64,000 nt of DNA, taken from the NCBI RefSeq assembly GCF_001955715.1, contig NZ_CP019239.1, forward strand, positions 744,001 to 808,000, given 5' to 3'. Both the position numbers and the translations under genes were made by a program. Positions 35,393 through 46,624 of the stretch are shown piece after piece. This stretch comes from Rhodoferax saidenbachensis. Lineage in GTDB: Bacteria; Pseudomonadota; Gammaproteobacteria; Burkholderiales; Burkholderiaceae_C. Below the pieces are notes generated by a model that saw only the letters and a program-made list of their open reading frames with translations, did not search any database and had not been told where the DNA came from. Every line of letters begins with the position of its first letter. Within the stretch, counting starts at the first letter, position 1.

Positions 35393-36559
35393 ATGCTAAA
35401 TCTGAGCGCCCTTTTCTACACAGAAGTCGAATTCGAGACCTGTCTCTTCGACAACCTGAACCTTCCGGAAGATGCCAAATCGGACATCGCAGACGCGAAG
35501 AACGATGTTCGAATGGCGCTGCGAGACGGAATTCCCCGTGTGTACGCTGACGAAGGGCACCCCGGCAAGGTCCCGCAGCCTCGTTTCTTCACCCAGGGGT
35601 CCTGGGCTTACAAAACGCTGAATGCACCCGCGCAGAGCCCTCAACAGGCAGACGTTGACGATGGCTGCTACCTGCCACTCAGCTTCCTGACCTTGACTGA
35701 CCGCCCCAGTGTTGCGGCCGAGGTCTTCTTCGACGTTGCGCAAAAAGCACTGGCAGAGCTCGTGGAGCAGAGGGGCTGGAAGCTGTCGAGCAAGCCTACT
35801 TGCATCCGCATCGAAATCAACGATCTCGCACATATCGACGTTCCTCTGTATGCAATTCCTGACAAGGAGTTCGAAACCCTGGTCAAGGCCGAGAACGTCA
35901 GGCGTGCCACCCTTGACGGAAAGAGCTATTCCTTCGAGGCCGCGGCTGATAGCTGGGATGAGCTATCCACCACGAAGGTGCTGCTGGCCCATCGCGATGA
36001 AGGCTGGATGCACTCGGACCCCCGTCCGGTGAAAACGTGGTTCGTTGACCAGGTGGCCACCAAGGGCGAGCAGCTCCGCAGGGTGGTGCGCTACCTCAAG
36101 GCATATCGCGACTGGACTTGGGACAAAGGTGGCCCGAGCTCCATCCTGCTGATGGCGGCGGCGGCGCCACTGTTTGTGAGGCAGGATCGTCGCGACGATC
36201 AGGCGCTGCTTGACGTTGTAAAGCTGCTGCCAGCGGTGCTGCGTAAAGGTGTCAATAATCCAATTAACCCGGAGGAGTCATTGACCGACCGCCTGCGTGC
36301 ATCCAGCGATGATGCGGACATGGTCGAGCAGGCTGCTCTGCAGTTTGAAGATCTTGGCAGCAGACTGCAGGCTGCGTTGGACGCCGGAAACGCCGAGCAG
36401 GCATGCAGCTGGTTGCGCGATCTGTTTGGGCCACGTTTCCCGAATCGCCCCGAGCGCGTGAAAGTCGGGGCCGCTGTTTCCTCTGTTGCCGCTGCCATTG
36501 CATCTTCACCGGCGATTGCGGGGCCATCGGAGTTAGTCGGACGGACCCGCGCCGGATGA
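35393..36559 (+). CDS. CBASS CD-NTase, DncV-like cyclic dinucleotide synthase
   Basis: 388 residues from ATG 35393. The nucleotidyltransferase signature is [11 protein letters not shown] (G69-S70) followed by [11 protein letters not shown] (D87, D89) and a third acid in LAHIDVPLY (D149). The DDGCYLP form and the flanking sequence are closest to Vibrio DncV (clade A, cGAMP-type product). The protein ends in glycine (GRTRAG), as required if Cap2 conjugates the CD-NTase C-terminus to a target. Its stop overlaps the Cap2 start by 4 bp. In phage infection it would make the cyclic dinucleotide that activates an effector. Confidence 0.88.
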
Positions 36560-38172
36560 AGTTCGAGAAGGTCGCGATCCCGGACCTGACCGCCGCGCTG
36601 CACCAGCGTGGCTTTTCCTACGTTGGTCGAGGCTGGCACGGCTGGATGAAGTTCACCGGAGAGCTCAGGTTGAAGTCGCAGAGCTACCCCTGTGAAATCG
36701 CCGTTTCGCCGACGCTGGATGAGTTCCCTCGCGTTTGGCTGACGCCTTTGCCAGCAGGACGGGTTGAGCTGTTGCCGCACCTCAGCACCGACGGTTACTT
36801 GTGCTACTTGTCGGCAGACTCGGTCATCTTCGACTACTTCGACCCGATTCGGCAGACGATGACCTGCCTGGACCGGGCGGAGCAGGTGCTGGAGGATATC
36901 CTTGCTGGCAAAATGATCGATGACTTGGCAGAGGAATTTCACGCCACCTGGGGCGACAATATTTGCTTTCTGGACGTGGATGAGAGTCGGCCAGGTACCC
37001 TCGAGGCCTACTCCTTTACTCCGGAGTTGGCCGTGGTCACCGATGACAAGGCACGCACTCACGCTAAACTGGAATCCGTCGGCGCTGGACTGCCGAAGAT
37101 CGAGCTATCGGCGTTTCTCGTGCATACCAAGTCAAGGCCGATGCCAATCCGTGTCAGTTGGCCACCGAAAACAATTCAGACCTTCCTGCAATGGCAGAGC
37201 TCGCTCGACCGAGCCTGTCGTAAAAAGATCGAAGAGCGGCTCATGCAGCTGTTTAAGCGCAAGGCACCCCGTGTTCTGATCCTTATAGATTCGCCAGCGG
37301 TGCAGTACGGCATTGAGGTTGACCTGAAACGGGAGCCGGACGGCAAGGGCAAAAAGTCGTCGCTACGAGAAAACCTGTATCGACTGCCGATCCGACAAAC
37401 CTCGGTCTTCCGCATTGACGACAAGTACATTGCTGGGCGAAATCTCCCTGGGTCCAGGACGCTAGCAGGGCTCAGGGTTGGGTTGATCGGTTGCGGCACC
37501 ATCGGTGGCTATCTGGCAGAGTTGCTAGCTAAGGCTGGGGCGGGTACGGTCGGCGGAAAGCTGACGCTGGTTGACAAGGGTGCGCTTGAACCCTGCAATC
37601 TCGGACGACACCGACTGGGTTTCAACGCCCTGATGCAAGGCAAAGCAGAAGCCATGTGCAAGGAACTCCGGCGCATCGCGCCGGGCATCGATGTAGTGCA
37701 CATCAGTAGCGATGCAAAAGAGGCGAACCTGGGACCACTAGACCTGCTCATTGACGCGACGGGCGAGCAGGGGCTGACTGAGTGGCTAACTTGGAAGTAC
37801 GCGGAGAAAGTCCCGTACCTGTCCACGTGGGTTGAGGGGGCCGGTGTGGCAGTCCGCGCTTTGTTGAAAGCCAAGCCTGAACACGCATGCGCACGCTGCG
37901 TGTCCCGCCCGCCCTTGGCAGATCAGTATCGCGTCTTCGATTCGCCTCCGGAGGTCATCATGAGGGGGCATGGCTGCGAAGGTCTCTACGTCCCCTTTCC
38001 TGCTGCAGCCTCGGTACAGGCGGCAGCCCTAGCGATGGAGATGGTGCAGGCCTGGTTGGATGGCGCGGAGGCGCACAGCTTCAGGACGCGCGTGCTCGAT
38101 CAGTCGCGCCAGGTTCATTTCAAGGATTGCTCACCCCCGCGCTATGAAGGATGCCCTGCATGCGCCATGTGA
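36556..38172 (+). CDS. cap2: Cap2, fused E2-E1 ubiquitin-transfer-like enzyme of type II CBASS
   Basis: 538 residues. The N-terminal E2-like domain has the candidate active cysteine C83 in [12 protein letters not shown]; the C-terminal E1/ThiF domain starts near 305 with [20 protein letters not shown], followed by [18 protein letters not shown], a CxxC pair (C445/C448) and a cysteine in [11 protein letters not shown] (C474) suited to be the E1 thioester site. Cap2 primes CBASS by conjugating the CD-NTase C-terminus to cellular targets. Operon order CD-NTase - cap2 - cap3 is the type II core. Confidence 0.9.
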
Positions 38173-38630
38173 GTGACTGGACGCTTGATGACGGCAGCGT
38201 CATGCTGAACTTCTCGGACGAAGTCCGGAGGGTTTTCGAGAATAATGTCCAGCTCGGCGACAGCCCCGAAAGCGGCGGCATCCTCCTGGGCACCGTGCAT
38301 GAGCCCGGTTTACTGGTCACCGTGGCAACCACACCTTCGCGTCTGGACCGACAGTTTCGCTATCTCTTTGAGCGGTTGCCGTTCGGACACCGTGCGGTAG
38401 CGAAACGTCTGTGGCGCGCCTCCAACGGCACGACCCGCTATATCGGCGAGTGGCACACCCACCCACAGGACATTCCCACTCCATCGGGCATAGACCTGGA
38501 TGAATGGCGAAAGCTTGCCAGAATGCGAGCCGACAAGCTCCCGCTGTTGGCAGTGATTGTCGGGCGCGAAGCGCTTCACGTCGAATTGGCGCACGGCAAC
38601 GGCCACCGAGATTTGCTCCGGCCTTACTGA
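38160..38630 (+). CDS. cap3: Cap3, JAB/JAMM isopeptidase of type II CBASS
   Basis: 156 residues from ATG 38160 (GAAGGA nine bases upstream; an in-frame ATG at 38151 is also possible). The JAMM metalloprotease motif is complete: ESGGILLG glutamate, WHTHPQDIPTPSGIDLDEW with HxHP and S-x2-D. It removes CD-NTase from conjugates and so antagonises Cap2. It overlaps the end of cap2 by 13 bp. The next gene is convergent and 11 bp away. Confidence 0.9.
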   Translation: MRHVSDWTLDDGSVMLNFSDEVRRVFENNVQLGDSPESGGILLGTVHEPGLLVTVATTPSRLDRQFRYLFERLPFGHRAVAKRLWRASNGTTRYIGEWHTHPQDIPTPSGIDLDEWRKLARMRADKLPLLAVIVGREALHVELAHGNGHRDLLRPY

Positions 38631-38641
38631 GTTCTGTGTGT

Positions 38642-40054
38642 TCAGCGCCTACGCTTGATCCTCAACTTGGTGTACGCGGGCGCGGCCGGATTGTGCACAT
38701 GATGATGCACATCGCGTATGGTGACGGGGACACGCCGAGCTGCATAGACCTGCCCGTTGACCCGCACGATGCAGTCCATGTGATGCGTACCAAGGTAAAG
38801 TGTCCGCTCTTCGTTCTGCAGCATCCGCATTCCTACCCTTCGATGGCCGAGGTCACTGCTCTCGTCTGCGTCTAATCCCTTGTTACGCACCGTCCATTCG
38901 ACGGTAGCGAACATCGGCACAACCTGAGGGTTCACAATTGTAAAAACCAACGCGCAGTCCTTGGCAACCCCCGCCACCTGGTTGCGGTGCTTGGACACAA
39001 AACGGCGCTGCCGCCCACTGCCTGTGTAGACAGCGATGTCGATCTCGGGCACCTGCATGAGAGCCCGCGAGGTCTGCTCATCGACCAATTCGACCTCGTC
39101 CACTTCCGGCAGCGGCATCAAGAAAGAAAACGCCTCGGACCAGATCAGTGCCGCCGCAACTTCATCTGCCGCCTCAGCCGCACGCTCAACGATGTCCAGC
39201 AGCGCATCGAGCCTCGGCAGAAACGCTGCCCATGCCTCATCACTCATGCGATTGAGGTCTTCTTCGACCCTAGTGGCTGGGTTCTGGACGCGTTGGCTCC
39301 CGTTCAGTCGGCCATGTATTGTCCGGACTATGGAGATCAATGCGTCATCGTCAGAGACACCGAGCAGAAGGGCGAGGCCGATGTCGGGGTATGCCTCAGT
39401 AGCCAGAACCGTAAGGAAGATCGAGGACGGACGCGAATCGGGGATGTCGTCAAACGACAGGGCAGCCCAAGCCTTGAGGTAGCGTATCACTCTGCGCACC
39501 TGCTCACGCTCACCACCGGTGAGGGCATCCCTGAACCACTTGTAGAAGGTCTTAGGGTCGCTGGCCTCCCAACCCTTCGTAAGGCATGCCAGCCGTCGCT
39601 TATCGGTGTCACTATTGAGGTGATAGACCGGGGTGTCGATGTGGAATTGATGCTCGTAAGATGCCCGTGAGCAACGCTCCTTGGGTGGCTCCGCCACGGA
39701 ACGCATGTCCGCGCATTGATCGTGGTATTCAATGAGCTCTTGTTGCACCCAACGACGTAGCTGCTCGGCCGTGGGTTCAATGCTTTCGCCGTTGCCCCAA
39801 TCGAAGTAGACGCCGAGATCGACGTCGTATTCTTCGTCCGCCAGTACAGGCTTGATCAACGTACCGTACTTGTAGGAGCCCTGAAGCCACGTCGAGATCG
39901 CATAGCCATGCTTGGCCTTGAGCGACACCTTCAGGTACTCGGCCAAATCATTCCAGCTTGTTTGCAGGAATTCGCGCTGCCGCGTCGTGGGGCTGACACG
40001 GTTGATCAGCGTTTGTTCCCCGGCTCCATTGAACAGTGAGCTGGCGCGGCCCAT
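38642..40054 (-). CDS. Second CD-NTase with C-terminal AGS-C-like sensor domain
   Basis: 470 residues. The nucleotidyltransferase motif is WLQGSYKYGT (G59-S60) with EYDVDLGVYF (D77, D79) and FHIDTPVYH (D140). Residues about 345-465 form a beta-rich tail with VFTIVNPQVVPMFATVEWTV, YLGTHHMDCIVRV and a basic end, matching the adenylyl/guanylyl and SMODS C-terminal sensor (AGS-C) pattern. All catalytic acids are kept. It follows a CapV remnant in the same direction with the start 1 bp from that stop, so it was probably the cyclase of a separate CBASS with a patatin effector. It is convergent to the type II operon. Confidence 0.85.
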   Translation of the reverse strand: MGRASSLFNGAGEQTLINRVSPTTRQREFLQTSWNDLAEYLKVSLKAKHGYAISTWLQGSYKYGTLIKPVLADEEYDVDLGVYFDWGNGESIEPTAEQLRRWVQQELIEYHDQCADMRSVAEPPKERCSRASYEHQFHIDTPVYHLNSDTDKRRLACLTKGWEASDPKTFYKWFRDALTGGEREQVRRVIRYLKAWAALSFDDIPDSRPSSIFLTVLATEAYPDIGLALLLGVSDDDALISIVRTIHGRLNGSQRVQNPATRVEEDLNRMSDEAWAAFLPRLDALLDIVERAAEAADEVAAALIWSEAFSFLMPLPEVDEVELVDEQTSRALMQVPEIDIAVYTGSGRQRRFVSKHRNQVAGVAKDCALVFTIVNPQVVPMFATVEWTVRNKGLDADESSDLGHRRVGMRMLQNEERTLYLGTHHMDCIVRVNGQVYAARRVPVTIRDVHHHVHNPAAPAYTKLRIKRRR

Positions 40055-40450: not shown

Positions 40451-40525
40451 GCCTCAGTAGTTCAACGGACAGAACGAGGCCCTCCTAAGGCCTAGACGCA
40501 GGTTCATTGCCCGCCTGCGGCGCCA
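40451..40525 (+). tRNA. tRNA-Arg (anticodon CCT)
   Basis: 75-nt cloverleaf with encoded CCA. Anticodon stem AGGCC/GGCCT is perfect around loop CTCCTAA (anticodon CCT, 40484-40486). D-arm GTTC/GAAC is intact. There is one mismatch in the acceptor (T-C) and one in the T-stem (A-C), and the T-loop is TTCATTG, so it is somewhat degenerate. Confidence 0.72.
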
Positions 40526-40533
40526 ACTAACAC

Positions 40534-40608
40534 CCCCGGTTAGCTAAGCGGTAGAGCAGCGCCCCTACAAGGCGACGGTCTGCGGTTCGATCCCGTGACT
40601 GGGGACCA
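40534..40608 (+). tRNA. tRNA-Val (anticodon TAC)
   Basis: 75-nt cloverleaf. Acceptor CCCCGGT pairs fully with ACTGGGG (one G-U); anticodon loop CCTACAA gives TAC (40566-40568); T-loop TTCGATC; discriminator A and encoded CCA. The outermost anticodon-stem pair is a G-A mismatch. A 5-prime C-rich acceptor is unusual for tRNA-Val, so identity rests on the anticodon only. Confidence 0.75.
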
Positions 40609-40613
40609 CTTTT

Positions 40614-40688
40614 GCCCGCGTAGTTCAATGGAGAGAACAGGCGCCTTCTAAGCTTCAAACACAGGTTCAATTCCTGTCGCGGGCTCCA
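40614..40688 (+). tRNA. tRNA-Arg (anticodon TCT)
   Basis: 75-nt cloverleaf. Acceptor GCCCGCG/CGCGGGC and T-stem ACAGG/CCTGT are perfect, D-arm GTTC/GAAC is intact, and the loop CTTCTAA gives anticodon TCT (40647-40649). One C-T mismatch lies in the anticodon stem. Discriminator T is unusual for tRNA-Arg. CCA is encoded. Confidence 0.82.
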
Positions 40689-41335: not shown

Positions 41336-42958
41336 TTAGCGACCTTCGTCGGCAGGCATCATCGAACGGACTGAATTCCACGTCAGTTGGAACTTGAGCA
41401 GGTATTTGCGCAGCCGATCCGCGTCATTGACGATGGAACGCTGCGTGCGCGAACGGTCAAACAGTCGGCGGCCGGCATCTGAAAGCGTCAGTGATTCTCG
41501 GCAAACCCGGATGACAGCCTCAAGCTGCATGCGGTCGAACAGATCCAGACTGTCAATGGCGTCGGCCGGGAGCATGGCCTCCAGGTCGAGCCCGGTTGAG
41601 TTCACCTCTCCGACTGGTTGCCACAGCCATTGAAGCCGCTGGATTTCCGCATTGACGAGGCTAGCTGAAATCCGCCCCCCGTCTGCCAGCGTCGCCATCC
41701 GCGTGACGCTGGCAGAGAGATCGCGGAAGTTGCCACTCCACAGCGCGTCTGCCGACTTGGCAAACTGCAAATATCGGGCCTTGGCTTCGGCATTGAACCG
41801 GACGACTCGCCCGGTTTCGGCCGCAGCTCGGCTCAGTTGGTGTTCGATGTTGGGCTCAATGTCTTCCGGGCGTTGGGCCAAGCCGGGCAAGGTGTACGAC
41901 CAGAGGTTGATCCGGGCAAACAAATCTTCCCGGAAGCGTCCCTGTGCGACGTCGACGCGCAAGTCGCGGTTGGTGCCAGCAATAAGCTGAAAATCGCTAC
42001 TCACCTCACGGTCGCTCCCCATGGGCAGGAACCGCTTCTCCTCCACGGCCTTGAGCAGCATCGCTTGCTCATCCGGACCGAGCTCGCCAATCTCGTCCAG
42101 AAATAGCACACCCTGGTGCGCTGTACGGAGCAGACCAGGCCTGTCAGCCGCAGCCCCTGTGAACGCGCCCTTCTTGTGGCCGAACAGAGTCGATGCCGCA
42201 CCATCCCCGCGCAGCGTGGCGCAGTTGACTTCGACGAAGTCGCCCTGGACTTGGTGGCGCGACTTCTTCAGCTCGAACATGCGTCGCGCCAAGTGAGACT
42301 TACCGGCGCCGGTGGGGCCAGTCAGCAAAATGGGGGCCTGCGAGCGCACTGCCACGCGCTCAATCTCCTCAATCAAGGCATTGAAGCGCTTGTTCCGCGT
42401 CGGGATGCCGCTCTTGAGGAACTCCAATGCTTCCGCATGAGCCTGGCTAAAACGCTGAGCCAAGACGTCGTAGCGCGAGAGGTCCAGGTCGATCAGCGTA
42501 TAGCTGCCAGGATTGCCTCGCTCCTGCTTCTTCGGCGGCGCCGTCTGCAGCAGCACGCCAGGAATGAAGCGCGACTCGACCATCAGGAACATGCAGATTT
42601 GCGCCACATGCGTGCCGGTCGTGATATGCGCCCAATACTGCTCATGGACTGGATCGAAGCGATAGCCGCGCGCCCAGTCATAGAGCGCCGCGTACATGAC
42701 TCCGAAATCCCAGGGATCCACGACATCCATCGGCACCAGGTTCACGACGGTGTCGGGCGACACATTCGCAACGTCGCGCAGCAGGGTCTGCGCCAGGGCT
42801 TCGTAGCGCGTCGGATAGAGCAACTCCAGCCGGTCAATCAGCGTGTCTTCGTGCTGGACCAAGGAAATCGTCGGCCGCCACTTCTCCCAGCGTCCAGCGC
42901 CTTGGCCTGAGTCCAGTTGGGTTCCCATGAATCCGATGACAACGTTCTTCTTGGTCAT
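41336..42958 (-). CDS. rtcR: RNA-repair transcriptional activator RtcR
   Basis: 540 residues. The N-terminal CARF-like sensor begins KNVVIGFMGTQLDSGQGAGR, then a sigma54 AAA+ domain with Walker A GPTGAGKS (214-221), the sigma54-contact loop GAFTGA (264-269) and Walker B LFLDEIGELG, and a C-terminal helix-turn-helix region. RtcR activates the rtc operon with sigma54 when its CARF domain senses an RNA end signal (reported to be damaged tRNA products carrying 2-prime,3-prime cyclic phosphate). It diverges from rsr, whose promoter has a perfect -24/-12 element. Confidence 0.95.
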   Translation of the reverse strand: MTKKNVVIGFMGTQLDSGQGAGRWEKWRPTISLVQHEDTLIDRLELLYPTRYEALAQTLLRDVANVSPDTVVNLVPMDVVDPWDFGVMYAALYDWARGYRFDPVHEQYWAHITTGTHVAQICMFLMVESRFIPGVLLQTAPPKKQERGNPGSYTLIDLDLSRYDVLAQRFSQAHAEALEFLKSGIPTRNKRFNALIEEIERVAVRSQAPILLTGPTGAGKSHLARRMFELKKSRHQVQGDFVEVNCATLRGDGAASTLFGHKKGAFTGAAADRPGLLRTAHQGVLFLDEIGELGPDEQAMLLKAVEEKRFLPMGSDREVSSDFQLIAGTNRDLRVDVAQGRFREDLFARINLWSYTLPGLAQRPEDIEPNIEHQLSRAAAETGRVVRFNAEAKARYLQFAKSADALWSGNFRDLSASVTRMATLADGGRISASLVNAEIQRLQWLWQPVGEVNSTGLDLEAMLPADAIDSLDLFDRMQLEAVIRVCRESLTLSDAGRRLFDRSRTQRSIVNDADRLRKYLLKFQLTWNSVRSMMPADEGR

Positions 42959-43164: not shown

Positions 43165-44739
43165 ATGGTCAACACGCAACTCTTTCAAACCCTCAAGGGC
43201 GCTCTGCTGCCTGCAGCCAAGGTGCTCAATGCCGAGCAGGCGCCGGCCTATGCTTTCAGCCCGCGCCATCAGCTGGCGCAACTCGCAGCCACAGGCTGTC
43301 TGAGCCAGACCTTCTACGCCAACGCGGAAGACCAACTCGACATGGTGACGGCGCTGGCGCAAGAAGTCGATGCCGCCTTTGTCGCCAAGACCGCGATCTA
43401 TGCCCGTCAGTCCGGCCACATGAAAGATATGCCGGCGCTGCTGGCGGCTGGCCTGGCTGTGCGTGACGTGGCCCTGCTGAACCAGGTGTTCTCGCGTGTG
43501 GTCGACAACGGCAAGATGCTGCGCAACTTCGTGCAAATCCTCCGAAGCGGCGCTGTGGGCCGCAAGTCGCTGGGTACTCGTCCGAAGAAGTTGGTGCAAC
43601 ACTGGCTGCTGACGGCAACCGAGAAGCAGCTTCTGAATGCGGCCGTGGGCAATACGCCGTCACTGGCCGACGTGGTCAAGATGGTTCACCCCAAGCCTTC
43701 CGAGGCCTGGCGTGCCGCCTGGTTCGCGTGGCTGATCGGCAAACCGGTCGATGAAGCGGCCCTGCCGCCCATCACTCAGTCGTTCGAGCGCTTCAAGCGC
43801 GAAAGCGCCCAAGGCGTTGCGACCGATGTGCCGGAGGTTCCGTTCCAGATGCTGACTGCGCTGGAGCTGAGCTCGGCCCAGTGGGCGCAGATCGCTCGCA
43901 CCGGTTCATGGCAGATGGTGCGTCAGAACCTGAACACCTTTGCTCGTCACGGTGTGTTCGACATCGAAGGCATGGCCGAGGTTGTCGCTGCCAAGTTGAG
44001 CGACCCGCAGGCTGTGGCCAAGGCTCGAGTGATGCCCTACCAGCTGATGGCTGCGTTCAAGGCGACTGGCGAAGCCGTGCCGCAGGTGGTTCGCGATGCG
44101 CTGCAGGATGCGATGGAAGTCGCGCTGAACAACGTGCCCAGCTTTGAGGGGCGCGTGGTGGTGTGCCCTGACGTGTCGGGTTCGATGAGCTCGGCCGTGA
44201 CTGGTCATCGCGGTTCGGCGACGTCCAGCGTGCGTTGCATCGACGTGGCTGCCCTGGTGGCTGCGGCGGTGTTGCGCAAGAACCCGCAGGCCCGTGTCTT
44301 GCCGTTCGAACAGGATGTGGTGAAGCTGTCGTTGAACGCCCGTGACTCGGTCATGACCAATGCGCAAGCGCTGGCCAAGATCGGTGGTGGCGGTACAAAC
44401 TGCAGTGCGCCGCTGGCCATGTTGAACCGTGAGCGCGCATCGGTGGACCTGCTGGTCCTGGTCTCGGACAACGAGTCCTGGGTCGATGCCAACCGGCGCG
44501 GTGCGACGCAGACTTTGCGCGAGTGGGAAGTGCTGAAGAAGCGAAATCCGAATGCGCGCCTGGTGTGCATCGACATCCAGCCGACGGTAACCACACAGGC
44601 GGCGGAGCGCCATGACATCCTGAATGTCGGCGGCTTCTCCGATGCGGTGTTCACGATGGTGGCGAACTTTGCGGACGGCAAGATAGAGGCCGAGCACTGG
44701 GTTGGCGAAATCGAGAAGGTGTCGCTGGCCGCACAGTAG
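43165..44739 (+). CDS. rsr: Ro60-like TROVE domain RNA-binding protein (Rsr)
   Basis: 524 residues from ATG 43165 (AGAGGAGA upstream). The N-terminal TROVE HEAT-repeat ring (QDQ-type helices, AIYARQSGHMKDMPALLAAGL, LGTRPKKLVQHWL) is followed by a von Willebrand A-like domain with the MIDAS motif DVSGSMSS and a later TNCSAPL. Ro proteins bind Y RNAs and misfolded or damaged RNA and, with PNPase, aid RNA decay. It is the first gene of the rtc operon and is followed by five Y-RNA-like RNAs. Confidence 0.94.
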   Translation: MVNTQLFQTLKGALLPAAKVLNAEQAPAYAFSPRHQLAQLAATGCLSQTFYANAEDQLDMVTALAQEVDAAFVAKTAIYARQSGHMKDMPALLAAGLAVRDVALLNQVFSRVVDNGKMLRNFVQILRSGAVGRKSLGTRPKKLVQHWLLTATEKQLLNAAVGNTPSLADVVKMVHPKPSEAWRAAWFAWLIGKPVDEAALPPITQSFERFKRESAQGVATDVPEVPFQMLTALELSSAQWAQIARTGSWQMVRQNLNTFARHGVFDIEGMAEVVAAKLSDPQAVAKARVMPYQLMAAFKATGEAVPQVVRDALQDAMEVALNNVPSFEGRVVVCPDVSGSMSSAVTGHRGSATSSVRCIDVAALVAAAVLRKNPQARVLPFEQDVVKLSLNARDSVMTNAQALAKIGGGGTNCSAPLAMLNRERASVDLLVLVSDNESWVDANRRGATQTLREWEVLKKRNPNARLVCIDIQPTVTTQAAERHDILNVGGFSDAVFTMVANFADGKIEAEHWVGEIEKVSLAAQ

Positions 44740-44763: not shown

Positions 44764-44875
44764 GGTGTCTCAGGCGAATGCCTGCAGGAGTACAGCACCA
44801 TTGGCCGCGCGGGCCGGCAAGCCCGCAACGGAGAATCCGTAGGCCGCTCTTGCAACTTTCGTCGCCTGGGGCACC
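44764..44875 (+). ncRNA. Y-RNA-like RNA, unit 1
   Basis: Closed by a 14-bp stem, 44764-44777 with 44862-44875 (two G-U pairs). After the 5-prime strand comes the shared 17-nt motif ATGCCTGCAGGAGTACA (44778-44794). Inside are hairpins GCGGGC/GCCCGC and ACGGA/TCCGT; no TTCGA-type T-loop. 3-prime side begins with CTTTCG before TCGCC. First of five tandem units between rsr and rtcB; lies 24 bases after the rsr stop. Confidence 0.75.
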
Positions 44876-44896
44876 AACCAGCACCAACAATCGTCG

Positions 44897-44964
44897 TCGC
44901 GTGGTGAATGCCGGTGGGACTACATCTGTAAAACGTGTCTCACCAACTGTTTGTCGCCACGCGG
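44897..44964 (+). ncRNA. Y-RNA-like RNA, unit 2 (minimal)
   Basis: 68 nt. Outer stem of 11 bp, core GCGTGGTGA (44899-44907) with TCGCCACGC (44954-44962). Shared motif ATGCCGGTGGGACTACA at 44908-44924. Inner 8-bp stem GGTGGGAC/GTCTCACC, no tRNA-like T-arm. The 3-prime strand is preceded by GTTTG. It is thus a bare Ro-binding-type stem without the tRNA mimic. Confidence 0.72.
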
Positions 44965-44979
44965 GGGCTGTTAAGTTTT

Positions 44980-45074
44980 GCGCGAATGCTGGCAGGAATA
45001 CATTGGAACGCCGGGGGTTCGAATCCTCAACCGGGAAACCGGCATGGCATCTTCTTGCCCCCCCCTTGTCGCGC
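44980..45074 (+). ncRNA. Y-RNA-like RNA, unit 3, with T-arm
   Basis: 95 nt closed by GCGCGA (44980-44985) with TCGCGC (45069-45074). Motif ATGCTGGCAGGAATACA at 44986-45002. A T-arm with loop TTCGAAT (45018-45024) is followed by CCGG-GAAA-CCGG, a tetraloop-capped stem in place of an acceptor. The 3-prime strand is preceded by CCTTG and followed by seven T (45075-45081), a terminator-like or processing end. Confidence 0.75.
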
Positions 45075-45088
45075 TTTTTTTGCGATGT

Positions 45089-45221
45089 CCTGTTGCGAAT
45101 GCAGGTGGAACTACAGACTATTAATCTCGGTGTCGCGGGTTCGAGTCCCGTCGGCCTCCGTCAGGAAGCCGTAGCTCAGTGGTAGAGCACGATGTTTCAC
45201 CAAAAACTTGTCGCAGCAAGG
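45089..45221 (+). ncRNA. YrlA-like Y RNA, unit 4, circularly permuted tRNA-like module
   Basis: 133 nt. Closing stem CCTGTTGCGA (45089-45098) with TCGCAGCAAGG (45211-45221), one A bulge. Motif ATGCAGGTGGAACTACA at 45099-45115. Then, in order: T-arm GCGGG-TTCGAGT-CCCGT (45135-45151), an 8-bp acceptor-like helix (45152-45159 with 45164-45171, one mismatch) capped by GTCA, TA, and a perfect canonical D-arm GCTC-AGTGGTA-GAGC (45174-45188). The tRNA parts are thus in permuted order. The 3-prime strand follows CTTG; five T at 45228-45232. Confidence 0.82.
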
Positions 45222-45233
45222 CATCACTTTTTA

Positions 45234-45374
45234 GCGGTGAATGCAGATGGAATTACAGGTAGACGCACGCGGCGCAAGCTGCGTGTCCCGTGAGCGATCA
45301 CGGGGCGCCCGGGTTCAAATCCCGGTCCAGCAATGGATGGCGGAGTAGAAGATTTCATCGCCTCTTGTCACCGC
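45234..45374 (+). ncRNA. Y-RNA-like RNA, unit 5, with T-arm
   Basis: 141 nt closed by GCGGTGA (45234-45240) with TCACCGC (45368-45374), perfect. Motif ATGCAGATGGAATTACA at 45241-45257. Internal hairpin CCCGTGA-GCGA-TCACGGG, then T-arm CCGGG-TTCAAAT-CCCGG (45309-45325) and TCCA-GCAA-TGGA, a GNRA-capped stem where the acceptor would be. The 3-prime strand follows CTCTTG; five T at 45377-45381, directly before the rtcB start region. Confidence 0.77.
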
Positions 45375-45397
45375 ACTTTTTGATAGAGAACAACAAC

Positions 45398-46624
45398 ATG
45401 TCAGAACTGAACTACAACATTGAGGACGTCCCCGGCGGTGTGCCGGTGAAGATGTGGACCAAAGGCGTGCCCGTCGAGGCTGAGGCCATGGACCAGCTCG
45501 CCAATGCGGCTCGCCTGCCCATCGTGTTCAAGCACGTCGCAGCGATGCCGGACGTGCACTTGGGCATCGGCGCCACCGTCGGCTCCGTGATTCCGACCAT
45601 CAAGGCCATCATCCCTGCGGCGGTCGGCGTGGACATTGGTTGCGGCATGATGGCCGCGAAGACTACGCTGCGCGCGGAAGACTTGCCAGACAACCTGGGC
45701 CCGCTGCGCTCAGCCATCGAAGCGGCCGTGCCGCATGGCTTCACGCCGCGCCGTGGTGGCCGCGATCCCGGTAGCTGGGAGAACCCGCCCGTATCGGTGG
45801 ACCAGGTCTGGGCGACGTTGGCCGACGATTTCGACGCGTTGTGCGAGTTGCACCCACGCCTGAAGAACACGAACAACCGCAAGCACCTGGGGACCCTGGG
45901 TACGGGGAACCACTTCATTGAGGTCTGCCTCGATGAGACAGGTTTCGTTTGGTTCATGCTGCACTCAGGTTCGCGCGGAGTAGGGAACGCTATCGGCACG
46001 CACTTCATCGAACTGGCCAAGAAGGATGCCGAGCGCAACCAACGCAATCTGCCCGACAAGGACCTGGCCTACTTCGAGGAAGGTGCCGAGCACTTTGACG
46101 ACTACGTGCGCGGCGTGGGCTGGGCGCAGCGCTTCGCGATGAAGAACCGCGAGGTGATGATGGCCAACCTGATCGCCACGGTCCGCAAGGTCATCACGAA
46201 GCCCTTCGAGTCACACGTCGAGGCAGTGAATTGCCACCACAACTATGTGCAAAAGGAGCGTCACTTTGGCGAGGATGTGTTCGTGACTCGCAAGGGCGCG
46301 GTGAGCGCCAAGCGCGGTGAGTTGGGCATCATTCCGGGCAGCATGGGCGCGCGCAGCTATATCGTGCGCGGTTTGGGCAACCCGGAGAGTTTTGAGAGCT
46401 GCAGCCACGGCGCGGGTCGTGTGATGAGCCGTACCAAAGCGAAGAGGATGTTTACCGTGGAAGACCAAATCAAGGCGACTGAGGGCGTTGAATGCCGCAA
46501 GGACGCCAACGTCATCGACGAAATTCCGATGGCTTACAAGGACATCGACGCCGTCATGGCGGCGCAGAAGGACTTGGTCGAAGTGGTGCACACTTTGAAG
46601 CAGGTGGTGTGCGTGAAGGGATAG
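45398..46624 (+). CDS. rtcB: RNA-splicing ligase RtcB
   Basis: 408 residues from ATG 45398. The manganese and active-site motifs are present: PDVHLG, GVDIGCGM, LGTGNHFIEV, LHSGSRGVGN, NCHHNYVQKE and SHGAGR (H337, the guanylylated histidine). RtcB joins 2-prime,3-prime-cyclic-phosphate or 3-prime-phosphate RNA ends to 5-prime-OH ends using GTP, repairing cleaved tRNAs. It follows the Y RNA units and precedes rlaP and rtcA. Confidence 0.96.
   Translation: MSELNYNIEDVPGGVPVKMWTKGVPVEAEAMDQLANAARLPIVFKHVAAMPDVHLGIGATVGSVIPTIKAIIPAAVGVDIGCGMMAAKTTLRAEDLPDNLGPLRSAIEAAVPHGFTPRRGGRDPGSWENPPVSVDQVWATLADDFDALCELHPRLKNTNNRKHLGTLGTGNHFIEVCLDETGFVWFMLHSGSRGVGNAIGTHFIELAKKDAERNQRNLPDKDLAYFEEGAEHFDDYVRGVGWAQRFAMKNREVMMANLIATVRKVITKPFESHVEAVNCHHNYVQKERHFGEDVFVTRKGAVSAKRGELGIIPGSMGARSYIVRGLGNPESFESCSHGAGRVMSRTKAKRMFTVEDQIKATEGVECRKDANVIDEIPMAYKDIDAVMAAQKDLVEVVHTLKQVVCVKG

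What the first reader, a model, noticed from the sequence alone, without database searches (positions are those of the whole stretch)
44764..45381. Five tandem Y-RNA-like RNAs between rsr and rtcB sharing an ungapped 17-nt motif
Each unit starts with a closing-stem strand ending GA, then ATGCnkRyRGRAnTACA, aligned without gaps in all five (44778, 44908, 44986, 45099, 45241), and ends with YYTTG or TTTCG followed by the complementary strand. Closing stems are compensatory: CAGGCGA/TCGCCTG, GTGGTGA/TCGCCAC, GCGCGA/TCGCGC, TTGCGA/TCGCAG, GCGGTGA/TCACCGC. Different bases but the same pairing is strong evidence for structured RNAs. Salmonella has two such RNAs at this site; five, with and without tRNA-like arms, is an unusual expansion.
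Basis: seen in the sequence. Interest (0 to 1): 0.88.

Follow-up and report, generated by a model that had tools for sequence, protein, structure and literature searches.

The report
Five tRNA-mimicking Y RNAs in tandem
Between two genes of a bacterial RNA-repair operon lie five different small RNAs that share one protein-binding handle, and two of them carry rearranged but nearly complete copies of a transfer RNA, one with a fast-changing anticodon loop and one with its working ends sealed, which suggests bait or docking modules for the machinery that cuts and repairs tRNAs.

Summary
In detail: five closed units with the shared motif lie between rsr and rtcB, each with the Y-RNA handle; stems covary across relatives. 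"Unusual expansion" is wrong: 17 of 80 rsr loci (window included) hold five motif copies, a related genome holds nine, and units are orthologous by position (59 of 60).

The arms are the new part. U4 is YrlA-like, but with a complete anticodon arm: the Y stem enters between positions 28 and 29, and both basal pairs form in 62 of 62 analysable units. U33 is kept (60 of 62) while the anticodon triplet varies 5-10 times more than the rest. U5 is a class II (Leu/Ser-like) tRNA body opened in the D loop, its acceptor and anticodon ends capped by GCAA. U3 is a T-arm plus acceptor-like minihelix, U1 a non-tRNA junction, U2 a bare handle. Reordered, 27 of 38 U5-type modules are called tRNA (0 of 190 shuffles). 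No unit of the window reaches Rfam's cut-off.

Best mechanism (inferred): RtcR/sigma54-induced Rsr adaptors that engage tRNA-handling proteins; U4-type loops may bait anticodon nucleases. No expression or binding data; key Y RNA papers were not readable here. New variant of a known kind.

The parts
41336..42958 (-). rtcR: sigma54 activator with RtcR domain, divergent from the operon
   Evidence: Pfam PF06956 (270.9 bits) and PF00158
43102..43116 (+). sigma54-type promoter-like site TGGCACACCCTTTGC upstream of rsr
   Evidence: a looser regex finds such a site within 250 nt upstream of rsr in 64 of 80 loci (50 of them 50-90 nt upstream), and in 15 of 800 shuffled upstreams
43165..44739 (+). rsr: Ro60 orthologue (TROVE and vWA)
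   Evidence: Pfam vWA_Ro60 75.7 bits, TROVE 30.6 bits
44771..44868 (+). Y RNA unit U1 (type A): handle plus three-way junction with two GC-rich hairpins; no tRNA features seen
   Evidence: fold and covariation on 22 units
44901..44960 (+). Y RNA unit U2 (type B): handle with a short loop only, YrlB-sized
   Evidence: fold; Rfam YrlB 22.5 bits, E 0.37; hit of model R1 at 36.4 bits
44979..45075 (+). Y RNA unit U3 (type C): handle plus T arm (GGTTCGAATCC) and capped acceptor-like hairpin, no D or anticodon arm
   Evidence: 37 units aligned, 98.0% of cells paired
45092..45217 (+). Y RNA unit U4 (type D, YrlA-like): handle entering the anticodon stem of a circularly permuted class I tRNA-like body
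   Evidence: Rfam YrlA 64.8 bits
45115..45127 (+). U4 anticodon-like hairpin AGA-CUAUUAA-UCU (29-31, loop 32-38, 39-41); insertion relative to the Rfam YrlA consensus
   Evidence: basal pairs C27-G43 and G28-C42 formed by 45190-45191 with 45128-45129
45135..45188 (+). U4 T arm (45135-45151), acceptor-like hairpin (45152-45171) and D arm (45174-45188), in that order
   Evidence: and Rfam alignment
45234..45374 (+). Y RNA unit U5 (type E): handle entering the D loop of a permuted class II tRNA-like body
   Evidence: hit of model R2, which holds no window sequence, at 71.1 bits, E 1.1e-16
45258..45266 (+). U5 G18 G19 and 3' half of the D stem (GGTAGACGC)
45268..45304 (+). U5 anticodon arm capped by GCAA (45268-45283) and long variable arm capped by GCGA (45287-45304)
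45309..45325 (+). U5 T arm CCGGG-TTCAAAT-CCCGG
45326..45337 (+). U5 acceptor-like stem sealed by a GCAA tetraloop (TCCA-GCAA-TGGA)
45338..45345 (+). U5 U8, 5' half of the D stem, A14 and G15 (TGGCGGAG)
45398..46624 (+). rtcB RNA ligase
   Evidence: Pfam PF01139 430.7 bits
46681..47496 (+). rlaP: RNA repair pathway nucleotidyltransferase
   Evidence: Pfam PF10127 323.5 bits
47528..48565 (+). rtcA RNA 3'-phosphate cyclase
   Evidence: Pfam PF01137 258.8 bits

Best explanation
The stretch encodes five bacterial Y RNAs, carried on the RtcR/sigma54-controlled rsr-rtcB-rlaP-rtcA transcript. Each has the same basal handle (closing stem ending GA/UC, AAUGC on one side and a UUG- or UCG-ending loop on the other, second stem ending GRA) that by homology binds Rsr. 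Above the handle each shows a different module: U1 a non-tRNA junction, U2 nothing, U3 a T-arm/acceptor-like minihelix, U4 a tRNA body whose anticodon arm is kept but split by the handle between positions 28 and 29, U5 a class II tRNA body entered through the D loop with both working ends capped. Shown here by sequence: the units, pairing, permutations, kept tRNA core nucleotides, and a hypervariable anticodon triplet in U4-type units. Inferred: when anticodon nucleases cut tRNAs and RtcR is activated, Rsr is made with a set of exchangeable adaptors. Capped and minihelix modules hold tRNA-binding or RNA-decay proteins (PNPase, modification and end-processing enzymes) on Rsr without entering translation; the U4 module shows an anticodon loop that competes for, or is cut by, the damaging nuclease and can then be re-sealed by RtcB.
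For: Identity. Covariation. Permutation: ARAGORN finds none of the five in native order in the window; among all rotations, 27 of 38 U5-type modules are called tRNA, in every case with the cut in the capped acceptor hairpin, 0 of 190 shuffles (23 of the 27 without an amino acid assigned); U4-type 55 of 72, U1/U3-type 0 of 68, U2-type 0 of 41. tRNA core: U8, G10, C11, A14, G18, G19, G53, U54 and C56 are invariant in 22 of 22 and 18 of 18 rows (two rows are in both sets; many rows were first picked by motifs that hold G18, G19 or the D stem). Ends: acceptor cap GNRA/UNCG/CUUG in 36 of 42, anticodon-arm cap of that kind in 23 of 42, a 7-nt anticodon loop in 1 of 42. Split anticodon stem: 27:43 and 28:42 pair in 62 of 62 analysed of 72 U4-type units, U33 in 60 of 62. 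Anticodon triplet diversity 0.50 against 0.05 for the rest in 15 Variovorax units, 0.61 against 0.12 in 17 nearer the window. 8 of 29 distinct loops equal a native anticodon loop of the window genome, 10.6% expected in frame. Co-occurrence: 15 of 399 order genomes (own included) have the RNA at E<=1e-5, all among the 16 with Rsr. Context: passages of PMC7790460 say that RtcR binds 5' tRNA fragments with 2',3'-cyclic phosphate from anticodon-loop cleavage, and suggest that YrlA could be a competitive inhibitor of the nuclease.
Against: In Salmonella, YrlA fragments were not detected under DNA damage (PMC7790460 passage), although the Rfam consensus lacks the anticodon hairpin. The window's own U4 loop (CUAUUAA) is not a native loop of its genome, nor are 21 of the 29 distinct loops. 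Other parts of U4-type units vary too: loop positions 32-33 and 37-38 have diversity 0.26 and 0.34, the hairpin stem 0.18 and 0.17, and the acceptor hairpin 0.05 and 0.29, in the two groups. 11 of 38 U5-type and 17 of 72 U4-type modules are not called by ARAGORN in any rotation, and 1 of 38 U5-type units is called unrotated (L026). Shuffled sequence gives a 3-bp/7-nt hairpin in 558 of 1440 trials (66 of 72 real), so that hairpin alone is weak evidence; the basal pairs and U33 carry it. Variable loops could also reflect relaxed selection or exchange with tRNA genes.
Confidence: 0.5

Rival explanations
1. Purely structural adaptors or gates: the modules tether Rsr to PNPase and gate RNA entry, as in the Deinococcus and Salmonella complexes, and the tRNA likeness only gives a stable fold recognised by the decay enzyme. 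The anticodon loop is a passive hairpin.
For: Rsr and YrlA bind PNPase (passages of PMC9879122, and PMC8394870); DrY RNA tethers and gates (PMC4726728 passage). U1 and U2 show no tRNA likeness. Loop positions beside the triplet vary as well.
Against: A passive hairpin need not keep U33 (60 of 62) and a purine at 37 (58 of 62) while the triplet varies 5-10 fold more than the rest. Five different modules are kept in order (59 of 60 units nearest to the same-position unit of another locus).
Confidence: 0.3
2. Substrates for tRNA modification or processing enzymes: the modules titrate or recruit enzymes that recognise the tRNA elbow (TruB, DusA, RNase P, RNase Z and the like), tuning tRNA maturation during stress.
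For: YrlA is modified by DusA and TruB (passage of PMC8394870); elbow nucleotides are invariant; the elbow is a general docking site (passages of PMC4810234).
Against: U55, the position that TruB modifies (recalled), is C in 10 of 18 class I U5-type units and 2 of 22 of the other set. Does not explain the variable anticodon triplet.
Confidence: 0.15
3. Decayed tRNA genes or attachment-site debris left by mobile elements beside a repair operon.
For: T-arm segments resemble native tRNAs (short matches in own genome); the operon is patchy (16 of 399 order genomes), sits near tRNA genes and CBASS-like genes, and some loci sit on plasmids.
Against: Compensatory changes in the types tested, conserved order, co-occurrence with Rsr in the order sample.
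Confidence: 0.03
4. A leader or attenuator region of rtcB: the hairpins act in cis on the operon mRNA.
For: T runs follow the closing stems of U3 and U5, and the units lie directly upstream of rtcB.
Against: In three Cardiobacterium and three Neisseria loci the units lie upstream of rsr, and no rtcB was found in those loci; modules are far more elaborate than attenuation needs.
Confidence: 0.05

Closest known systems
YrlA (Rfam RF02553), Salmonella-type Y RNA
   Same: U4: same handle, same order T arm - acceptor-like hairpin - D arm, next to rsr
   Different: U4 has a 13-nt anticodon hairpin inserted relative to the Rfam consensus, and basal anticodon pairs; U5 enters the tRNA at the D loop and is not matched at E<=1 in the window; in four relatives with a U5-type unit it scores 42.4, 34.0, 24.0 bits or is not listed (L013), against a cut-off of 69
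YrlB (Rfam RF02565)
   Same: U2: small handle-only unit beside YrlA
   Different: 22.5 bits against a cut-off of 97
Deinococcus Y RNA in the Rsr-PNPase complex (RYPER)
   Same: handle for Rsr, module away from it
   Different: no tRNA-like body described in the passages read
Circularly permuted tRNA genes of algae and archaea (recalled, no call)
   Same: tRNA parts in permuted order, including a D-loop break
   Different: those are processed into working tRNAs; here the acceptor end is capped by a tetraloop and no CCA end is encoded
tmRNA tRNA-like domain
   Same: tRNA mimic fused to another RNA
   Different: no CCA end; only weak Rfam tmRNA matches (12.7-19.3 bits, cut-off 47) in relatives, none in the window stretch searched or at gathering score in the window

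Membership tests
Bacterial Y RNA (general) | basal handle: closing stem ending GA/UC, AAUGC and UUG/UCG internal loop, second stem | tested here: met
   all five units; models R1 and R2, which however miss U1
Bacterial Y RNA (general) | encoded beside rsr | tested here: met
   window; 74 of 80 loci have at least one motif copy downstream of rsr and the other six have model hits upstream of it. In one genome (G279) the best R1 match lies on another contig than rsr
Bacterial Y RNA (general) | occurs only in genomes with Rsr | tested here: inconclusive
   order sample: 15 of 15 RNA-positive genomes have Rsr, 16 of 399 have Rsr. Phylum sample: 9 of 10 Rsr genomes are RNA-positive, but 13 genomes without an Rsr match at E<=1e-30 have weaker RNA matches of at most 44.2 bits; four of these 13 were looked at and lack the motif (L180, L182, L183, L184)
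Bacterial Y RNA (general) | bound and stabilised by Rsr | not testable with these tools
   needs pull-down
YrlA (RF02553) | score at or above the Rfam cut-off of 69 | tested here: not met
   U4 64.8, U1 20.7, U3 20.6, U5 not listed at E<=1; no unit at gathering threshold. Some U4-type relatives reach it (L045 76.0, L071 73.0)
YrlA (RF02553) | permuted T arm, acceptor-like hairpin, D arm on the handle | tested here: met
   U4 only; U5 has these arms in another topology; U3 lacks the D arm; U1 and U2 lack all
YrlB (RF02565) | score at or above the Rfam cut-off of 97 | tested here: not met
   U2 22.5 bits
tRNA gene | found by a tRNA finder in native order, with an open acceptor end | tested here: not met
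   none at the array; acceptor capped
Adaptor of Rsr to PNPase | module binds PNPase | not testable with these tools
   known for Salmonella YrlA from passages only

The most novel reading that the evidence does not exclude
U4-type Y RNAs are an evolving panel of anticodon baits: a tRNA body held on Rsr shows a fast-changing anticodon loop to whichever anticodon nuclease attacks the host, sparing or reporting on the real tRNA, while U5-type RNAs are end-capped tRNA bodies that load elbow-reading enzymes onto Rsr, so that one operon makes both lure and workbench for tRNA repair.
Probability: 0.28. Interest if true: 0.9.

Novelty: new variant of a known kind. Interest (0 to 1): 0.76.

Why it matters
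The role of bacterial Y RNAs and of their tRNA likeness is open. Here one locus offers a graded series on the same handle (none, minihelix, split-anticodon tRNA, end-capped class II tRNA), and nature has varied the anticodon triplet while holding most of the rest nearly still. That makes specific tests possible: which module recruits which protein, and whether the displayed anticodon predicts the nuclease it blocks. The capped ends of U5-type units also point to the part of a tRNA that may matter to Rsr complexes: the elbow rather than the acceptor end.

Tried and rejected
Other Y RNAs elsewhere in the genome: model R1 finds only the array (E up to 1, 150 of 1818 candidates scored); the Rfam YrlA match at 2,016,972 (31.2 bits) spans two tandem tRNA genes and is rejected. 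Close likeness of U5 to one native tRNA: the reordered U5 module is no closer to tRNA-Leu than to tRNA-Ser (both score 56.0; best of 200 shuffles 54.5), so only 'class II, Leu/Ser-like' is claimed. Origin of the U1 module: nothing beyond a 20.7-bit YrlA match and a 17-nt match at E 0.66 in its own genome. Phage copies: five records with matches over 9% of the array; plasmid records, 48 with a match, best 18% of the array. Expression data for a Rhizobium relative: a search listing was seen, no paper read for it. The rtcB identities come from a wrong reading frame of mine and are void; one search holds the right ones. My rule-based unit types mislabel some units (class I U5-type as A, some U3-type as E or A); U5-type counts therefore rest on models. 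The U4-type set (label D, 105-136 nt, 72 units) does rest on that rule; four D-labelled units of other length were left out. The first unit caller joined some neighbouring units; one search replaced it, but it still leaves some units unclosed.

Full report
THE OBSERVATION. The five motif copies and closing stems are in the sequence as described. In window coordinates the closed units are U1 44771-44868, U2 44901-44960, U3 44979-45075, U4 45092-45217 and U5 45234-45374. Five exact matches of the motif pattern occur in the 64-kb window, all here; allowing two mismatches gives 10 matches against 1.73 expected.

THE NEIGHBOURHOOD. rtcR (Pfam RtcR plus sigma54 activator domain) is divergent; rsr (TROVE, vWA_Ro60), the array, rtcB, rlaP and rtcA follow in one direction. 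A sigma54-type site, TGGCACACCCTTTGC, lies 63 nt before rsr; a looser pattern is found within 250 nt upstream of rsr in 64 of 80 loci, 50 of them at 50-90 nt, and in 15 of 800 shuffled upstreams. This is the layout of the Salmonella rsr-yrlB-yrlA-rtcB-rtcA operon, which RtcR controls (passages of PMC9879122; PMC7790460), with rlaP added.

RELATIVES. A scan of named genome contigs with the Rsr protein gave 79 loci, mostly Burkholderiales and chosen by short peptide patterns of this query, so close relatives are over-represented. In these plus the window, motif copies downstream of rsr number five in 17 loci, four in 24, three in 17, two in 12, one in 4 and none in 6. The six are Cardiobacterium and Neisseria loci with model hits upstream of rsr instead. 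In 12 loci (window included) whose five units were all closed by my simple caller and follow the same length order, the nearest relative of a unit was the same-position unit of another locus in 59 of 60 cases; same-position identity of the two unit ends was 81.5%, other positions 58.9%. One order-level relative (L131) has nine motif copies, each with a closing partner of 6 or 7 of 7 pairs, by eye with a duplicated three-unit block; L176 has seven, and Rhizobium etli plasmid pA (L185) five. So the array is old and kept, not a local expansion.

CO-OCCURRENCE. In 399 genomes of the order, own genome included, model R1 (built from U5-type units) has a match at E<=1e-5 in 15, and Rsr is found in 16; all 15 are among the 16. 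At most eight candidates per genome were scored, so misses are possible; in one genome (G279) the best match is on another contig than rsr. In 398 genomes of the phylum, model R2 matches 22 at E<=1e-4. Nine of the ten Rsr genomes are among them; the other 13 lack an Rsr match at E<=1e-30 and score at most 44.2 bits. Four of those 13 were looked at and lack the motif; the other nine were not. The six genomes that score 65 bits or more all have Rsr. In its own genome R1 finds only the array.

U5-TYPE UNITS. Read against tRNA, U5 runs G18 G19 - D stem 3' half - anticodon arm - long variable arm - T arm - acceptor stem 3' half - GCAA cap - acceptor 5' half - U8 - D stem 5' half - A14 G15, with the Y handle filling the D loop between 15 and 18. 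Twenty-two units, most picked at first by motifs, align with 98.1% of cells paired, 19 of 31 pairs showing double changes, score 0.257 against 0.129 for shuffles and at most 0.086 for slid partners. A second set of 18 units (two shared with the first) has the same entry point but a class I body without the long variable arm. The model of this second set, which holds no window sequence, finds U5 at 71.1 bits, E 1.1e-16. U8, G10, C11, A14, G18, G19, G53, U54 and C56 never vary in either set, partly by the way the rows were picked; U55 varies. By folding of segments, the acceptor cap is a stable tetraloop (GNRA, UNCG or CUUG) in 36 of 42 units, the anticodon arm has such a cap in 23 of 42 (GCAA in the window), and a 7-nt loop in only 1 of 42. 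By either model at 65 bits or more, a threshold set after seeing a gap in scores, 41 of 79 loci and the window carry such a unit; most of these units were also used to build the models, so this counts occurrence and is not a test.

ROTATION TEST. ARAGORN finds no tRNA at the array in native order. When every rotation of each of 38 U5-type modules was tried, 27 gave a tRNA call, always with the cut inside the capped acceptor hairpin; in 23 of the 27 no amino acid was assigned. 0 of 190 dinucleotide shuffles gave a call, and 1 of 38 whole units (L026) was called without rotation. Nine of the 11 misses have modules of 94-115 nt or belong to the two most divergent rows; one search gives the lengths. 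Of ten candidate modules from loci outside the training sets, taken by a crude pattern that also takes other unit types and misses some U5-like ones, two were called (L175 and the Rhizobium etli unit of L185), 0 of 50 shuffles. Other unit types: U4-type 55 of 72, U1/U3-type 0 of 68, U2-type 0 of 41.

U4-TYPE UNITS. The U4 hits were unexpected and led to the second feature. Directly after the handle's UAC stands a 3-bp hairpin with a 7-nt loop (window AGA-CUAUUAA-UCU, 45115-45127), which is an insertion relative to the Rfam YrlA consensus. Of 72 U4-type units, 10 lacked a Watson-Crick hairpin of this form or a recognisable D arm and were set aside. In all 62 others, window included, the two bases after position 26 pair with the two after the hairpin (58 CG/CG, 3 GG/CC, 1 GG/UC), completing a 5-bp anticodon stem that the handle enters between 28 and 29. 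The loop keeps U33 in 60 of 62 and a purine at 37 in 58 of 62. An alignment of 34 of the 72 units, picked by me from those with the hairpin and with this stem included, has 98.3% of cells paired and score 0.211 against 0.094; three rows (GCA/UGC stems) are out of register by one and count as unpaired there. The triplet 34-36 has pairwise diversity 0.50 against 0.05 for the rest in 15 Variovorax units, and 0.61 against 0.12 in 17 nearer the window; the neighbouring loop positions have 0.26 and 0.34, the acceptor hairpin 0.05 and 0.29. There are 29 distinct loops with 18 triplets; 8 of the 29 equal one of 40 native anticodon loops of the window genome (Lys CUU and UUU, Arg UCU and CCU, Asn GUU, Asp GUC, Glu UUC, Leu CAG), against 10.6% expected with random triplets in the same frame (binomial 0.009) and 0.9% for shuffled loops. 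The window's own loop is not among the eight.

U3, U1, U2. U3-type units keep the T arm and a capped acceptor-like hairpin (37 of 49 units of that length class aligned), a minihelix without D or anticodon arm. U1-type units (22) form a three-way junction with a hairpin loop of CNGCAA type; three pairs of the second hairpin change on both sides, but two of the five covariation measures do not stand clear of the shuffles. U2 is a bare handle.

MECHANISM. Shown: anatomy, pairing, permutation, conservation and co-occurrence. From papers (passages only): RtcR is activated by 5' tRNA fragments with cyclic phosphate made by anticodon-loop cleavage, Rsr and YrlA bind PNPase, YrlA is modified by DusA and TruB, and the idea that YrlA competitively inhibits the nuclease has been raised (PMC7790460; PMC9879122; PMC8394870). 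Inferred: capped and minihelix modules load tRNA-binding or decay enzymes onto Rsr, and the U4 loop is a bait. Identity as Y RNAs is near certain (about 0.97, my estimate); the adaptor set about 0.5; the bait step about 0.3.

WHAT IS KNOWN. No unit of the window reaches Rfam's gathering score. In four relatives that have a U5-type unit (L013, L045, L053, L071), that unit scores 24.0-42.4 bits with YrlA or is not listed, while the U4-type unit of the same locus scores 64.7-76.0, twice above the cut-off of 69. I saw no mention of anticodon-bearing or D-loop-entered Y RNAs in nine searches of the held library (the last two were on other questions), of which I saw listings and the passages cited. 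The main Y RNA papers (Chen 2014, Wang 2018, Sim 2018, Sim 2020) and one RNA-repair paper were not held, so priority is not established; one review passage describes the YrlA domain as D, T and acceptor arms only.

Noticed in passing
window 36403-40054: CBASS-like gene set: ThiF/E2-like protein, JAB protease and a DncV-like nucleotidyltransferase; no effector was looked for.
   Followed up: partly
window 40451-40688: Three tRNA genes (Arg CCU, Val UAC, Arg UCU) in a row between the CBASS-like genes and rtcR.
   Followed up: no
L002:6233-7003, L049:6558-8155: Unnamed reading frames of 245-273 aa lie between the array and rtcB in some loci; L002 6233-7003 and L049 7334-8155 look related by eye.
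   Followed up: no
L131 (minus strand): Nine Y RNA motif copies in about 1.4 kb, by eye with a duplicated three-unit block; the first starts at the edge of the held stretch, so there may be more.
   Followed up: partly
L176 (minus strand) 1026-2004: Seven units in one locus of a phylum-level relative, by eye including both class I and class II D-loop-entered bodies.
   Followed up: partly
L017:5732-5838: A unit with, by eye, the 5' half of a U4-type and the 3' half of a U5-type module, as if recombined in the T arm.
   Followed up: no
L186:2001-2058 (Microbacterium phage A3Wally): Unannotated T arm - capped acceptor-like hairpin - D arm in permuted order, without the GAATGC handle; a similar stretch in phage Myrna is annotated tRNA-Asp.
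   Followed up: partly
window 45075-45081 and 45377-45381: T runs at the closing stems of U3 and U5, possible terminators or processing sites.
   Followed up: no
A2 rows (class I U5-type units): T-loop position 55 is C in 10 of 18 units, so the usual pseudouridine cannot form there.
   Followed up: no
G272:C14:43094-43423: A second, N-terminal-only rsr fragment (residues 1-110) in one genome.
   Followed up: no
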